Below, piece by piece: positions 4,054 to 62,023 of a stretch of DNA of 64,000 bases. The DNA is from Lactococcus allomyrinae. Lineage in GTDB: Bacteria > Bacillota > Bacilli > Lactobacillales > Streptococcaceae. Each line of letters opens with the position of its first letter. Position 1 is the first letter of the stretch. Location: the NCBI RefSeq assembly GCF_003627095.1, contig NZ_CP032627.1:1240001-1304000 (forward strand). Reading direction: 5' to 3'. Both the position numbers and the translations under genes were made by a program. The notes under the pieces are model-generated. The model searched no databases and was not told the DNA's origin. It saw nothing but the letters and a program-made list of their open reading frames with translations.

Positions 4054-4065
4054 GTCAGTACTGAC
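4054..4065. repeat. 12-bp palindrome GTCAG[TC][AG]CTGAC, first exact copy of a dispersed family
   Basis: Exact copies of this core start at 4054, 4709, 5412, 12173, 14194, 21341, 21437, 22103, 30702, 38430, 41454, 43327, 45465, 51334, 51579, 54683, 55150, 59519, 59669, 61389 and 61721. Most extend to CTGTCAG..CTGACAGAA. Those at 4054, 14194, 41454, 43327 and 54683 are intergenic and the rest lie inside genes. Many half-sites and spaced pairs (for example 1732-1749, 11770-11790, 28681-28703, 30907-30920, 53075-53092, 62289-62309) belong to the same family. The function is unknown. Confidence 0.9.
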
Positions 4066-4078
4066 AGAAAATATTTTG

Positions 4079-5944
4079 CTAATCATAATACCCGTCAGCG
4101 ACCATCAATTCAATCAAGCGCTTAATAAATTCATCGCTTGTTTGACTTCTTCGCAAAAAATTCACATGATATTCTTCAACAAGTATTTCAATAATTCTTG
4201 GAAATATACGATTAAAATCATGTGAATCTGCTGGATTTATCGCCATCGCCAGAATCAATTTTATTGACTGTTCATCCCAGTAAAGCGGCTGAACTGGTTT
4301 TAATACAAGAAATCCAGTTTTCTTTCCTTCGTATCTGATGGTATGAGGAAGTGCGACACCGCTTGTAAAGGCAGTCGATGCCATTTTTTCCCTCTCAAAT
4401 AATCGTTGGGTATAATGATGATCAGTAAATCCCTTTTCGAAAAACCACTGTCCAATGAAGCTGAACACTTCTTCTTTTGATTCTACTTTTTCCAGTGCTA
4501 TGCACGCTTCTTTTTGAATTAATTTTGGTAAAAATTCTTCTAAAAAGTGTAAATAACGCTTTTGTTTGGTGCGTTCAATTCCTTTGCGAATTCTTACGAA
4601 ATCACGTTCTCTTAAAAATTCTTGGATAAAAACGACTTCTGCATCATAATCGAAAAATTTTTTCTCTGACGAAATAATAAACTCAACGCTGTCAGTATTT
4701 TTTATTTCGTCAGCACTGACAAAAAGTAATTCATCACCAAAGCGTGATTCCAATAAGACTTGAATCTGATTTTCTCTCTCTAAATAGTCTGAGCCAACAA
4801 GCAAAGTATGAATTTTTTCCGCATTTTTCTTTTGCTCATCCAAAAAAGAACCAATATGCAACGCCAAAAAAGCAATTTCATCCTCAGCAATCTCAATTTT
4901 CAAATCCGTTGCGATCAACGAAGACAAATATACTGCAACATCAAACAAAGCAGGATAACGCATCTTAATCTCTAAGGCACTCAGATTTCGCTTAACTTTT
5001 TTATTTTTTACTCGATTATAAAGATTTTGAGTATGAAGTAACAGACGATTTAAAAACTGTTGGTCAGTAAAATCAATCAGGAATACACTACTTAATTCTT
5101 CCAATGCCCGATGAAGACTAGCCGAAACATTTTTTGACACATAATTAGAAACTTCAACTTCACGATGCCCTCGCTCGCCATCGCATAACAAAGCCAGCTC
5201 AAACTTATCCTCCTGCGCCAGCTCAAGATGATAGTGATCAAAAATAGACTCTGCAATTTTTTCAATCATTGGCAAAGATGGACTTGAAAACACCTTAGAC
5301 TCATCCTGCCATTTCTGATTAAGTACAATAATCAGGTGCAAAATAAAATTCTGAAAAAAATATTGATTCACATGAAAATTAAATTCGTCAAAAACCTGCT
5401 GACAGATTTCTGTCAGCACTGACAACGGAATTTCTCCTAAAAATTGCTGCATTTCACCTTCCAGAGAAGGTGCATCACCATTTTTCTTACGAATGAGTGT
5501 CATGATAAGTAGCCGTTTCGCCTCTTGAGTCCCTGTCAAATAATAGCGAAACTCATGCTGCTTAATCATCAATTGATAATCCTGCATTAACTCTTGCAAC
5601 GCTGACATATCCTGACGAATGGTTGATTCCGACACCAAAAGCTCCTCTGCCAAATCAAATAAATCTACTCCATCGTCACCTTTTTGCAGTAAATAACGTA
5701 AAATAGAAAATCTGCGCCCATCCACCGATTCATCCACTTTTGGCACCTCAAAATACTGCCAATTATATCGGTAGCCCTCCCGACTACTTTCCACCAAATC
5801 AGGCACATCATCATTAAGTTGTTTCACATAATACCTGATGCTTCGATTTGTGACACCTAATATTTTTGCTAAATCCGAACTCGAAACAAACTGCTCCTTC
5901 TTCTGATTTTTTAGATAATCTAAAAGAATTTCTTTCTTTTTCAT
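4079..5944 (-). CDS. LicR/BglG-type PTS-regulated transcriptional activator (HTH-PRD-EIIB-EIIA)
   Basis: Predicted regulator of the adjacent cellobiose-type PTS operon. The 621 residues begin with a DeoR/HTH_11-type helix-turn-helix (SSSDLAKILGVTNRSIRYYV, about 22-41) and a second HTH (LAEELLVSESTIRQDMSAL). PRD domains follow, the second ending in AFLALHIGSFLDE, then a degenerate EIIB-like region (HTLLVGSDYLERENQIQ) without an obvious active cysteine. At the C-terminus is an EIIA domain with its histidine in GVALPHT (H534). In such proteins activity depends on phosphorylation by HPr and the cognate EIIB. The coding sequence carries two exact copies of the 12-bp palindrome, one of them encoding PLSVLTE. 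Its substrate is inferred from the neighbours only. Confidence 0.85.
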   Translation of the reverse strand: MKKKEILLDYLKNQKKEQFVSSSDLAKILGVTNRSIRYYVKQLNDDVPDLVESSREGYRYNWQYFEVPKVDESVDGRRFSILRYLLQKGDDGVDLFDLAEELLVSESTIRQDMSALQELMQDYQLMIKQHEFRYYLTGTQEAKRLLIMTLIRKKNGDAPSLEGEMQQFLGEIPLSVLTEICQQVFDEFNFHVNQYFFQNFILHLIIVLNQKWQDESKVFSSPSLPMIEKIAESIFDHYHLELAQEDKFELALLCDGERGHREVEVSNYVSKNVSASLHRALEELSSVFLIDFTDQQFLNRLLLHTQNLYNRVKNKKVKRNLSALEIKMRYPALFDVAVYLSSLIATDLKIEIAEDEIAFLALHIGSFLDEQKKNAEKIHTLLVGSDYLERENQIQVLLESRFGDELLFVSADEIKNTDSVEFIISSEKKFFDYDAEVVFIQEFLRERDFVRIRKGIERTKQKRYLHFLEEFLPKLIQKEACIALEKVESKEEVFSFIGQWFFEKGFTDHHYTQRLFEREKMASTAFTSGVALPHTIRYEGKKTGFLVLKPVQPLYWDEQSIKLILAMAINPADSHDFNRIFPRIIEILVEEYHVNFLRRSQTSDEFIKRLIELMVADGYYD

Positions 5945-6113
5945 CCTATTATCCCATTTTCATCATTTTCACAGTAAAATACCTGTCTATCCTATCTTTT
6001 GACATCCATACAAATTTATTCCAGCTATTTCGGAACTCTTAAAATCTTATTTCACAGCCTTTGAGTACCAACAATTTGGACACCCTCTCTTACAATCATA
6101 CCAAGTCAAGCTC

Positions 6114-6136
6114 AAAAAGGAGTTTAAAAACTCCTT
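6114..6136 (-). terminator. terminator of the cellobiose-type PTS operon
   Basis: Arms AAGGAGTTT and AAACTCCTT (6117-6136) followed on the minus strand by a T-run; the upstream arm overlaps the stop codon of the phospho-glucosidase gene. Confidence 0.8.
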
Positions 6137-60624: not shown

Positions 60625-60763
60625 GAGAAATTCCTATTTTTTTAGAGGTTATTTATCTAGTGAAATCCAGTTGTCCTATGGATAATTCATTGTGTACTCT
60701 TCCTATTATATCGTATTTCATCAAAAAAACGTAGCCCTGAATTGAGTTACGTAAAAGACTTGC

Positions 60764-60993
60764 ATGAAGTCAAGACTTATTCAGTGGGAGTTTCGTAAAA
60801 CATTTGTCCATTTTCTCTAGTCGCTGAAGCGACTGATAAAAGGGCAACTCACCGCTGAATTTAGTCGGACGAAATTCAAAGCTTGCCATTTCGTCTTGTC
60901 GCTTCAGCGACTTAGAGCGAATGGACAGCGTAGCATAGCGAAGATAGTACTGCTTTATCCCTAGGTAGGGGTATTAGCACGCACTTGCTTTGA
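60764..60993 (+). repeat. intergenic repeat family A, copy 2
   Basis: Same opening ATGAAGTCAAGACTTATTCA and same closing AGCACGCACTTGCTTT as 26557-26740, with an extra block (CTAGTCGCTGAAGCGACT) near the start. The two copies have the same orientation. It fills the gap between the cvpA upstream region and the end of the reductase gene. Confidence 0.8.
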
Positions 60994-61057
60994 TAAATTT
61001 ATCAATAATTTTATGAAATCAATTCATTTTGCTTTTTTGCACATATCTAATAACCTA

Positions 61058-62023
61058 TCAGAAGAGTGATGAGGAATGTCCTTTTCTTATGGCATGATCT
61101 AGCGTCAAAACTTTTGTCATTGCATTGATTGCTGTGACTGCTTCTCCAAAGCCAACCGACATCAGAGGGACTTTACCTATGTAATCACTCGCATCTCCAG
61201 CAGCATAAAGTCCCTCAATATTTGACTGCTGTTCACGGTTTGTTTTCACACGACCATTGCGACTTAGCTCAATCTCATCAATCAAATCAATGTGATTCGT
61301 CACAAAACCATAATTGACAAGTATCTTATCTACTGACAAATTGACTTTTTCGTCAGATTTTACTTTTGTCAGCAACAATCCTGTTTCTGTCAGTGCTGAC
61401 AGGGTATAAGGAACATAAATTTCCACACTTGACTCAGATACTTGCTCAACAGTAATTTCATGAGCTCGAAATGCGGTCCTCCGATGAATAAGATGCACTT
61501 TTTCTGCAATATTTTCAAGCATCAATGACCAGTCCAAAGCAGAATCTCCACCTCCAAGCACTGCAACCCTTTTTCCTCGGAATTCTTCGAGCGACCGGAT
61601 AAAATACGATATTTTTCCAGATTTAGCAAATTGTTCCTCGTGTTCCAACCCTAGCTTTCTCGGGGTCAAAAGTCCAGCTCCTGTCGTTAATAACACCGCT
61701 TTTGCACTTCTTTTTTCCTTGTCAGTGCTGACAAAAAATCCGTCAGTAACTTTTTCAATTTTTTGAACAGATTCGCCTAGAAAAAGCTCGTGAGGCACTC
61801 GTGCCACTTGTTCTAAAAGGTTTTGGGTCAAATTAATTCCTGAAATTACAGGCAATCCTGCAACATCATAAATCAATTTTTCAGGGTATAGATTTTGTGG
61901 TTGTCCCCCTGCAACTTCCGCAGACTCAATCATTGCCACAGATAAACCTCGCATTCCAGCGTAAAATGCTGCATAAAGTCCAACAGGACCCGCTCCAACA
62001 ATAATCAAATCTACATTCTGCAT
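61058..62023 (-). CDS. ferredoxin/flavodoxin-NADP reductase, thioredoxin-reductase-like (type 2, YumC-like)
   Basis: A 321-residue FAD protein: FAD motif VDLIIVGAGPVGLYAAFYAG, NADPH motif VAVLGGGDSALDW, and the C-terminal FAD motif GLYAAGDASDYIGKVPLMSV GFGEA. The redox CxxC of thioredoxin reductase is absent, which defines the FNR class. Two exact palindrome copies, at 61389 and 61721, encode TLSALTETG and FFVSTDKEK. Confidence 0.92.
   Translation of the reverse strand: MQNVDLIIVGAGPVGLYAAFYAGMRGLSVAMIESAEVAGGQPQNLYPEKLIYDVAGLPVISGINLTQNLLEQVARVPHELFLGESVQKIEKVTDGFFVSTDKEKRSAKAVLLTTGAGLLTPRKLGLEHEEQFAKSGKISYFIRSLEEFRGKRVAVLGGGDSALDWSLMLENIAEKVHLIHRRTAFRAHEITVEQVSESSVEIYVPYTLSALTETGLLLTKVKSDEKVNLSVDKILVNYGFVTNHIDLIDEIELSRNGRVKTNREQQSNIEGLYAAGDASDYIGKVPLMSVGFGEAVTAINAMTKVLTLDHAIRKGHSSSLF

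What the first reader, a model, noticed from the sequence alone, without database searches (positions are those of the whole stretch)
4054..61732. Dispersed 12-bp palindrome GTCAG[TC][AG]CTGAC, mostly inside genes
At least 21 exact copies occur in 64 kb (positions in the repeat entry at 4054), plus many half-sites and spaced pairs. With equal base use about 0.015 copies would be expected. About 16 are in coding sequence, where they give peptides such as LSVLTE, LSALT and VSTDSP in variable segments, so the DNA word seems to be kept rather than the protein. Copies cluster in regulators, kinases, surface protein and repair genes and are absent from tkt, ffh, pyrB, purB, rbsA, rbsC and asd. Density and intragenic placement recall DNA uptake sequences of Neisseria and Pasteurellaceae, which are not known for lactococci; a nucleoid, recombination or methylation mark is equally open.
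Basis: partly seen in the sequence, partly recalled or inferred. Interest (0 to 1): 0.85.

Follow-up and report, generated by a model that had tools for sequence, protein, structure and literature searches.

The report
Uptake-signal-like DNA word in Lactococcus
A short DNA word is scattered hundreds of times through this Lactococcus genome, in and between genes and often in helically spaced groups, and changes form from species to species like the 'take up my own kind's DNA' tags of Neisseria and Haemophilus, which as far as I know have not been shown in Gram-positive bacteria; what it does here is untested.

Summary
In detail: 21 copies of GTCAGYRCTGAC in the window (shuffle mean 0.01) and 415 in the genome (reversed control 0). 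Codon use does not explain it: 81 coding copies in 580 kb versus 0.37 after synonymous shuffling.

The palindrome is one arrangement of a half-site, about TRCTGACAGAA, on both strands. In this genome half-sites stand on one helix face (dyad spacings 0, 20-21, 30, 40-42, 50 bp; period 10.35); sister G011 shows the same period, other relatives weakly or not. Between the two sisters the arms are nearly invariant while the central YR drifts, and sites turn over mostly by substitution. Between genes they favour 3' ends over promoters. They are scarce in six lactococcal phages and a mobile-like island. Relatives carry dialects (TTACTGACAGA, TTACTGACGAA, TTTTGACAG); the garvieae group has nothing comparable.

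Best explanation (0.55): an uptake-signal-type sequence read by the competence machinery and spread by molecular drive. Main rival: sites of a cooperative chromosome-binding protein. Function is untested.

The parts
4054..4065 (.). palindrome GTCAGTACTGAC, intergenic
4709..4720 (.). palindrome in PRD/EIIA regulator gene (VSADE)
5412..5423 (.). palindrome in PRD/EIIA regulator gene (LSVLT), neighbour dyad at -20 bp
12173..12184 (.). palindrome in aldehyde-dehydrogenase-family gene (LSVLT), neighbour at -22 bp
14194..14205 (.). palindrome, intergenic
21341..21352 (.). palindrome in LRR_5 surface-protein gene (VSTDS)
21437..21448 (.). palindrome in LRR_5 gene, 96 bp from the previous one in an internal repeat
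22103..22114 (.). palindrome in LRR_5 gene (VSTDG)
30702..30713 (.). palindrome in two short doubtful ORFs
38430..38441 (.). palindrome in PfkB-family kinase gene, neighbours at -32 and +31 bp
41454..41465 (.). palindrome, intergenic, neighbour at +42 bp
43327..43338 (.). palindrome, intergenic, inside the longer palindrome ATTTCTGTCAGTACTGACAGAAAT
45465..45476 (.). palindrome in mannitol-dehydrogenase-family gene
51334..51345 (.). palindrome in rbsK-like PfkB gene
51579..51590 (.). palindrome in rbsK-like PfkB gene
54683..54694 (.). palindrome, intergenic, neighbour at -31 bp
55150..55161 (.). palindrome in type I 3-dehydroquinase gene, neighbour at -20 bp
59519..59530 (.). palindrome in mutS2, neighbour at +21 bp
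59669..59680 (.). palindrome in mutS2
61389..61400 (.). palindrome in trxB-like gene, part of a five-half-site cluster (61303-61430), neighbours at -21, -37 and -63 bp
61721..61732 (.). palindrome in trxB-like gene, neighbour at +21 bp
62276..62318 (-). convergent half-site pair forming a terminator-like hairpin (ACTGACAGAAATTCTGTCAGT, A/T arms)
   Evidence: -17.8 kcal/mol, z -7.5
53072..53095 (-). half-site pair CTGTCAGTATACTGACAG as hairpin plus T-run just past the purB end
   Evidence: -14.9 kcal/mol, z -5.5
11758..11806 (-). convergent half-site pair ACTGACAGATTTCTGTCAGT, intergenic hairpin
   Evidence: -13.4 kcal/mol, z -3.8
28668..28710 (-). convergent half-site pair ACTGACAGAAATCTGTCAGT, intergenic hairpin
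   Evidence: -12.6 kcal/mol, z -3.6
40490..40535 (-). convergent pair (one arm with a mismatch), intergenic hairpin; the arm in G011 matches the consensus
   Evidence: -10.3 kcal/mol, z -2.2
51154..51170 (.). close divergent half-site pair CTGTCAGTTACTGACAG, inside the rbsK-like gene

Best explanation
It is an uptake-signal-type sequence of the genus Lactococcus. SHOWN: a short half-site (core CTGAC; here TRCTGACAGAA) is over-represented about 200-fold on both strands, in and between genes. It is gained and lost mostly by point substitution, its core is conserved at DNA level between sister species, it exists as species dialects, it occurs as inverted hairpin pairs and favours gene 3' ends, and it is scarce in six phages and one mobile-like island. 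In this species and its sister G011, half-sites stand in helical phase around a dyad. INFERRED: a DNA-binding part of the competence system (a ComG minor pilin such as ComGF/ComGD, or ComEA) binds the half-site. DNA with several half-sites on one face is bound and imported better. Because imported kin DNA recombines into the chromosome, variants nearer to the consensus are over-transmitted, and the word accumulates wherever the protein tolerates it (molecular drive). A change of receptor specificity shifts the whole genome to a new dialect.
For: Number and specificity: 415 palindromes in 2.76 Mb, reversed control 0; TCTGTCAGTA 638 on both strands, control 0; TACTGACAGAA 76 versus 0.35 in 464 kb. 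Besides Lactococcus only G045 (393) and G040 (30) of a neighbouring genus exceed 4 palindromes among 245 family and 395 order genomes sampled.

Not codons: 81 coding palindromes versus a mean of 0.37 in 30 synonymous shuffles.

DNA-level conservation, G000 versus G011, 182 kb at 94.1%: CTGACAG identical in 157 of 190 versus 61.9% of 8000 occurrences of composition-permuted 7-mers. In 42 palindromes the arms diverge 0-7% per position, the central YR 26% and 21%.

Turnover: 77 substitution differences versus 5 with gaps. One-mismatch variants 15-fold and two-mismatch 2.4-fold over expectation.

Dialects: G007/G001/G016 TTACTGACAGA, G012 TTACTGACGAA, G009 TTTTGACAG, G005/G013 palindromes (tree).

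3' ends, convergent versus divergent spacers: G000 CTGACAG 21 in 8.6 kb versus 8 in 9.8 kb; G005 palindromes 17 in 5.0 kb versus 3 in 6.1 kb; G012 CTGACG 33 in 4.0 kb versus 3 in 5.0 kb; G009 TTGACAG 12 in 1.8 kb versus 0 in 1.8 kb.

Scarce in foreign DNA: 6 lactococcal phages 0.10 TCTGTCAGTA/10 kb versus 3.2 in G007; two island stretches 0.5 and 1.0 CTGACAG/10 kb, a third at its edge 4.0, versus 3.5-12.5 in the other sampled stretches.

Competence genes: ComEC in 17 of 18 and PF00437 (ComGA) in 18 of 18 genus genomes. Lactococci transform under ComX (PMC11244767, passages, start of its abstract).

Known uptake sequences have hundreds to thousands of copies, inverted repeats as terminators, dialects, and in USS AT-tracts about two helical turns from the core (PMC12616744, passages).
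Against: No uptake experiment exists. To my knowledge Gram-positive uptake is unspecific, and no receptor is identified. The garvieae group also has ComEC (five genomes) and comG genes (three examined) yet carries no comparable word. Arrays of phased half-sites are not described for DUS or USS in the passages I read; one motif is said there to be enough, so clustering is not predicted. Sites are over-dispersed, not even (CV 1.40 for half-site clusters, 1.21 for palindromes). The phasing is robust in G000 and G011 but weak in G007, G012 and G013 and absent in G005 after strict removal of pairs with shared sequence. Conservation of CTGACAG is high against words of the same composition but only 57th of 521 common 7-mers of any composition (82.6%, median 76.3%). 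Gaps near sites looked enriched against 70-76% identical relatives. comGB lies in two frames in G000, and G005, the richest in palindromes, shows no comGC-GG beside comGB; the ComEC frame is short in G003 (386 aa) and G001 (473 aa). A dyad-symmetric, phased site also fits an ordinary cooperative DNA-binding dimer.
Confidence: 0.55

Rival explanations
1. Binding sites of an unknown nucleoid-associated or chromosome-organising protein that binds as a dimer at the dyad and cooperatively along one face of the DNA, used for compaction, segregation or nucleoid occlusion.
For: In G000 all three pair orientations collapse on one dyad-to-dyad spacing with period 10.35 bp, with few pairs at one turn (18) and a peak at two turns (200), as for a dimer with a footprint of about 20 bp. 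Arms conserved, centre free. Scarce in phages and a mobile-like island. Sampled density is lower (3.5-6.5 per 10 kb) at 740-980 kb, around and just past the terminus inferred from GC skew.
Against: Hundreds of sites inside coding sequence, each kept by selection for chromosome structure, would be unusual. The garvieae group of the same genus lacks it. L. lactis-like genomes have half-sites with few palindromes. The 3'-end bias is not predicted. Sites near the inferred terminus are fewer, not absent.
Confidence: 0.22
2. A self-mark read by a nuclease or repair complex, like Chi: DNA with the word is spared or recombined, DNA without it is degraded.
For: Over-represented in the chromosome and scarce in phages; hundreds of copies, as for Chi.
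Against: Nearly strand-symmetric (39/39 in the window; 289/349 in the genome), whereas Chi is oriented. The lactococcal Chi word GCGCGTG (recalled) is separately over-represented, also in the garvieae group.
Confidence: 0.08
3. A methylation-linked iterated palindrome like cyanobacterial HIP1, created and kept by methyltransferase-dependent repair.
For: Abundant palindrome, as HIP1 (PMC4390886, abstract and passages).
Against: None of PF02086, PF01555 and PF00145 is present in all motif-rich genomes: G000 has no PF02086 or PF01555 match, G007 no PF02086 or PF00145 match. Six lactococcal phages do not show it above background. Other methyltransferase families were not searched.
Confidence: 0.06
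4. A family of small mobile or terminator repeats (REP/MITE-like) spread by copying.
For: Hairpins at gene ends; two insertions or deletions of 20 and 30 bp carrying sites between G000 and G011. G012 has longer repeated elements around its dialect word.
Against: 77 of 82 site differences are substitutions. 63% of CTGACAG lie inside ORFs. No strongly shared flank beyond the half-site is seen.
Confidence: 0.04
5. By-product of codon and peptide preferences (LSVLT, VSTD) or chance.
For: Peptides recur.
Against: Synonymous shuffle 0.37 versus 81 observed; also intergenic; 0.01 expected in the window.
Confidence: 0.01

Closest known systems
USS of Pasteurellaceae
   Same: Short core with flanks, many copies, inverted pairs as terminators, variants between species, helically spaced flanking elements about two turns away (passages of PMC12616744).
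   Different: Here the phased flanking elements are further copies of the core, the core can close into a dyad palindrome, and the host is Gram-positive. Uptake not shown.
DUS of Neisseriaceae
   Same: Hundreds to thousands of copies, dialects that follow phylogeny and differ by few bases around an invariant core (there CTG, PMC3630211 abstract and passages; here TGAC, CTGAC in most).
   Different: DUS is one continuous word of up to about 13 nt; no phased arrays are described in the passages read. Receptor ComP not looked for here.
HIP1 of cyanobacteria
   Same: Highly iterated palindrome.
   Different: HIP1 is tied to widespread orphan methyltransferases; none of three families is common to the motif-rich lactococci. 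Half-site unit here.
Chi (GCGCGTG in lactococci, recalled)
   Same: Over-represented chromosomal word.
   Different: Chi is non-palindromic and oriented; it is found as a separate word in the same genomes.
SlmA nucleoid-occlusion sites (recalled consensus GTGAGTACTCAC)
   Same: 12-bp palindrome of similar design, dispersed on a chromosome.
   Different: Dozens, not hundreds, of sites, in gammaproteobacteria; all from memory, nothing tested.

Membership tests
DNA uptake sequence (DUS/USS) | Strong genome-wide over-representation of a short word on both strands | tested here: met
DNA uptake sequence (DUS/USS) | Intragenic as well as intergenic, inverted pairs at gene 3' ends as terminator hairpins | tested here: met
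   termination itself not assayed
DNA uptake sequence (DUS/USS) | Dialects between related species around an invariant core | tested here: met
   core TGAC
DNA uptake sequence (DUS/USS) | Depleted in mobile or foreign DNA | tested here: met
   6 phages and one mobile-like island
DNA uptake sequence (DUS/USS) | Host has a complete competence apparatus | tested here: inconclusive
   ComEC, ComEA and comG genes found, but comGB in two frames in G000 and comGC-GG not found beside comGB in G005
DNA uptake sequence (DUS/USS) | DNA with the word is taken up preferentially | not testable with these tools
   needs a transformation competition
DNA uptake sequence (DUS/USS) | A surface receptor binds the word (ComP in Neisseria) | not tested
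   no candidate assayed
HIP1-type methylation palindrome | Cognate methyltransferase coextensive with the word | tested here: inconclusive
   PF02086, PF01555, PF00145: none in all motif-rich genomes; other families not searched
Chi site | Oriented, strand-biased with replication | tested here: not met
   39/39 in window; 289/349 genome; per-stretch counts
REP/MITE or transposed repeat | Copies arise as insertions of a longer unit | tested here: not met
   77 substitution versus 5 gap differences, G000 versus G011
Transcription-factor operator | Concentrated upstream of genes | tested here: not met
   divergent spacers poorest in CTGACAG, 0.82/kb versus 2.45 convergent and 2.13 tandem in G000

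The most novel reading that the evidence does not exclude
A Gram-positive uptake-signal system: lactococci recognise kin DNA at the competence pilus or ComEA through helically phased arrays of a CTGAC half-site, with species dialects acting as barriers to gene flow. This would be a third, separately evolved uptake-sequence lineage beside Neisseriaceae and Pasteurellaceae, in a dairy model organism, and one that reads multi-site arrays.
Probability: 0.45. Interest if true: 0.95.

Novelty: new variant of a known kind. Interest (0 to 1): 0.85.

Why it matters
If it is an uptake signal, the textbook split (specific uptake only in two Gram-negative families, unspecific in Gram-positives; recalled) falls. 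It would also offer a practical handle: adding the right dialect word to donor DNA could raise transformation of lactococci. If it is instead a chromosome-protein site, it is a nucleoid system written into coding sequence by the hundreds, with helical phasing visible in the sequence alone. Either way the test is simple and can be done in lactococci: a named 22-kb L. cremoris locus already carries 16 CTGACAG.

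Tried and rejected
Rejected: chance and codon bias; transposed repeats as the main source; transcription-factor operators; Chi. Weakened, not excluded: methylation. Even spacing, as recalled for some uptake sequences, was not found: sites are over-dispersed.

Led nowhere: paper searches with the motif letters listed papers whose titles gave no sign of such a motif; they were not opened (20 of 57 listed, 5 of 5). No title listed (20 of 4,807), 22, 50, 51, 83, 84, 90 announces such a word in Lactococcus. 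I recall a 2002 paper on frequent oligonucleotides of three streptococci (Mrazek and co-workers) that might mention it; it is not held and I have not read it, so earlier notice cannot be excluded. Passages of PMC1939737 and PMC12236230 added only background. A plasmid search with a chromosomal query showed no lactococcal plasmid in the ten of 18 records listed. A first tree mixed wrong strands and is discarded (replaced). In one search gaps near sites looked enriched against 70-76% identical relatives; inspection of some suggested alignment noise in variable stretches, and I used the 94% identical pair instead. The gene-conservation test had only 87 and 70 genes with orthologues in the fetched stretches.

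Limits: k-mer and spacing work used samples, 580 kb of 2.76 Mb for G000 (464 kb) and 22-300 kb for each relative; only pattern counts are whole-genome. Genes were called by a simple ORF rule. G014 and G015 are incomplete (71% and 85%) and were not sampled for word counts. Family and order genomes were tested with the palindrome only, so other dialects there would be missed. The strict filter also drops pairs that overlap within one cluster. In 'near 3' end' takes precedence over 'near 5' end', so I rely for that point.

Full report
WHAT IS THERE. The window is part of the chromosome (C1, 1240001-1304000) of a Lactococcus genome, G000. Its MutS2 is 97% identical to G011 and 82% to G016, G007, G001 and G012; named matches at 82% are L. 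taiwanensis and L. cremoris. GTCAGYRCTGAC occurs 21 times: 16 in ORFs, one of them doubtful, and 5 between genes. The whole genome has 415 and the reversed pattern 0. Among 18 genomes searched in the genus the palindrome counts are G005 762, G011 433, G000 415, G013 408, G002 71, G015 24, G007 19, G001 16, G016 11, G009 2, G012 2 and seven with 0. Of 245 family genomes, only G045 (393) and G040 (30), in a neighbouring genus, exceed 3 outside Lactococcus. Of 395 order genomes, none but G000 exceeds 4. In named 22-kb mutS2 loci, CTGACAG/palindrome counts are L. taiwanensis 16/0, L. cremoris 16/0, L. hircilactis 16/9, L. petauri 1/0, L. formosensis 3/0, Lactovum miscens 3/0.

THE UNIT IS A HALF-SITE. 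CTGACAG occurs 39 times on each strand of the window. In 464 kb of G000 the word TACTGACAGAA occurs 76 times against 0.35 expected. Its CTGAC positions hardly vary; its outer positions do, mostly by transitions at positions 1, 2 and 9. Whole-genome counts of TCTGTCAGTA, both strands: G011 684, G007 676, G000 638, G005 527, G001 445, G016 182, G013 73, G012 35, G002 28, the other nine 3-8; reversed control 0-5. So the L. lactis-like genomes are full of half-sites though nearly free of palindromes.

HELICAL PHASE. Pairs of CTGAC in G000 prefer certain distances in each orientation. If each half-site is assigned the dyad it would have in the palindrome, all orientations fall on one series: 0 (and 2), 20-21, 30, 40-42, 50, 60, 71, weaker beyond. 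One turn (8-12 bp) has 18 pairs against 200 at two turns. The best period is 10.35 bp and the Rayleigh statistic about 186 for 1075 pairs. For direct pairs in 464 kb it is 61, and 40 within single ORFs; 99 control pentamers have a median of 1.5. Of the best controls, TGTCA (30) and AGTAC (19) are parts of the motif, GAAAA (18) and TCCTA (17) are not. After strict removal of pairs whose intervening sequence recurs, 263 pairs in G000 still give 76 and 136 in G011 give 29. G007 (9), G012 (6) and G013 (5) are weak, and G005 (1.5) and the motif-free G010 (0.3) show none. The G009 dialect gives 13 for 31 direct pairs without that filter.

DNA-LEVEL CONSTRAINT AND TURNOVER. In 182 kb aligned between G000 and G011 (94.1%), CTGACAG is identical in 157 of 190 cases against 61.9% of 8000 occurrences of composition-permuted words. 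It ranks 57th of 521 common 7-mers of any composition (median 76.3%) and first of 7 with four G/C. In 42 palindromes, arm positions diverge 0-7% and the central two 26% and 21%, with flanks mostly 2-12%. 77 site differences are substitutions and 5 involve gaps, among them a 20-bp and a 30-bp insertion or deletion. In coding sequence, synonymous shuffling leaves 0.37 palindromes against 81, and 39 CTGACAG against 305.

DIALECTS. Unbiased word counts give: G007 TTACTGACAGA 67 against 0.3; G012 TTACTGACG 54 against 2.6 and TTACTGACGAA 20 against 0.3; G009 TTTTGACAG 117 against 12.3, often in the pair TTTTGACAGTTCTGTCAAAA; G005 TCAGTACTGAC 145 against 0.1; G013 palindromes with a looser centre. 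In 457 kb of five garvieae-group genomes no comparable word appears, while the Chi word GCGCGTG (identity recalled) is the top 7-mer and serves as positive control. Two weak signals there must be told: GCTGACGAA, like the G012 dialect, 16 against 2.6, and CTGACAG in G010 coding sequence 19 against 11.4 after synonymous shuffling. In a MutS2 tree the lactis/G000 clade, the G009/G005/G013/G002 clade and the garvieae clade are unresolved among themselves, so loss in the garvieae group and repeated gain are both possible.

PLACE IN THE GENOME. 63% of CTGACAG and 77% of palindromes in the G000 sample lie inside ORFs, which make up 80% of it. Between genes, sites favour 3' ends. CTGACAG per kb in convergent versus divergent spacers is 2.45 versus 0.82 in G000; for palindromes in G005 3.40 versus 0.49; for the dialect words 8.2 versus 0.6 in G012 and 6.8 versus 0 in G009. 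The contrast is weaker for G000 palindromes (0.23 versus 0.10/kb, tandem 0.35) and G007 (2.69 versus 1.13, tandem 3.65), and rests on small counts. Many pairs can form hairpins; five in the window that I picked fold at -10.3 to -17.8 kcal/mol, z -2.2 to -7.5. A stretch between 177.6 and 297.9 kb has no palindrome. Three 20-kb samples of it have 4.0, 1.0 and 0.5 CTGACAG per 10 kb. Of ten of its ORFs, one is a topoisomerase, one IS21-type IstB, one PlyCA_N, one LXG, one LPXTG/SpaA, and five have no family, which suggests a mobile element. Six lactococcal phages (210 kb) have 23 CTGACAG (1.1 per 10 kb, as in the motif-free G010 with 0.9) and 2 TCTGTCAGTA. Strand bias is nil in the window and slight genome-wide (289/349).

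COMPETENCE GENES. ComEC is found in 17 of 18 (all but the incomplete G014) and PF00437 (ComGA) in 18 of 18 genus genomes. G000 has comEA (218 aa, itself holding six half-sites), comEC (744 aa) and the comG operon, but comGB lies in two frames in G000 and in one in G011. G005 shows comGA-GB without comGC-GG in the fetched 9 kb. The ComEC frame is short in G003 (386 aa) and G001 (473 aa). ComX-dependent transformation of L. lactis is published (PMC11244767, abstract start, passages). In S. pneumoniae, residues of ComGF, and less so ComGD, drive DNA uptake (PMC12040237, abstract).

INTERPRETATION. The traits match those reported for USS and DUS: copy number, terminator pairs, dialects (passages of PMC12616744 and PMC3630211). 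They fit gradual spread by substitution. I therefore favour an uptake signal read by the competence machinery, at 0.55. The dyad-phased arrays are the new element. They suggest a receptor that reads several half-sites along one face, or else a cytoplasmic dimer that coats DNA, which is the main rival (0.22). Nothing here shows binding, uptake or function.

Noticed in passing
G000:C1 about 177.6-297.9 kb (L101-L103): Stretch of about 120 kb without the palindrome and poor in half-sites, with topoisomerase, IstB, LXG and LPXTG genes in the parts sampled: probably a large mobile element.
   Followed up: partly
L114:10369-11483: comGB of G000 lies in two frames; in the sister G011 both parts are in one frame. 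Could be a recent defect or a sequencing error.
   Followed up: partly
L256 (G005): comGA and comGB present but no comGC-GG found beside them in the fetched 9 kb, in the genome richest in palindromes.
   Followed up: no
window 26593-26699, 56780-56821, 60852-60959: A second dispersed repeat (up to 80-nt units such as ..CTTAGAGCGAATGGACAGCGT..); G011 also shows other frequent words such as GCTACGCTGTC and AGCACGCACTT.
   Followed up: no
window 10365, 17606, 40481, 56848: Four copies (81-100% alike) of a 21-nt repeat TTAGAGATGAACTAGTATAAA.
   Followed up: no
G012 stretches L125-L127, L191-L200: Besides the dialect word, a longer repeated element around CGTCAGCATTTTCTCT (39 copies of CGTCAGCATTT, both strands, in 260 kb).
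   Followed up: no
G045, G040 (neighbouring genus): 393 and 30 palindromes, so the word is not confined to Lactococcus.
   Followed up: no
garvieae-group stretches (five genomes, 457 kb): Weak excess of GCTGACGAA (16 against 2.6), which resembles the G012 dialect; possibly a relic.
   Followed up: no
G000, G007, G009, G013 and garvieae-group stretches: The Chi word GCGCGTG (identity recalled) is over-represented in these, including species without the new word.
   Followed up: no
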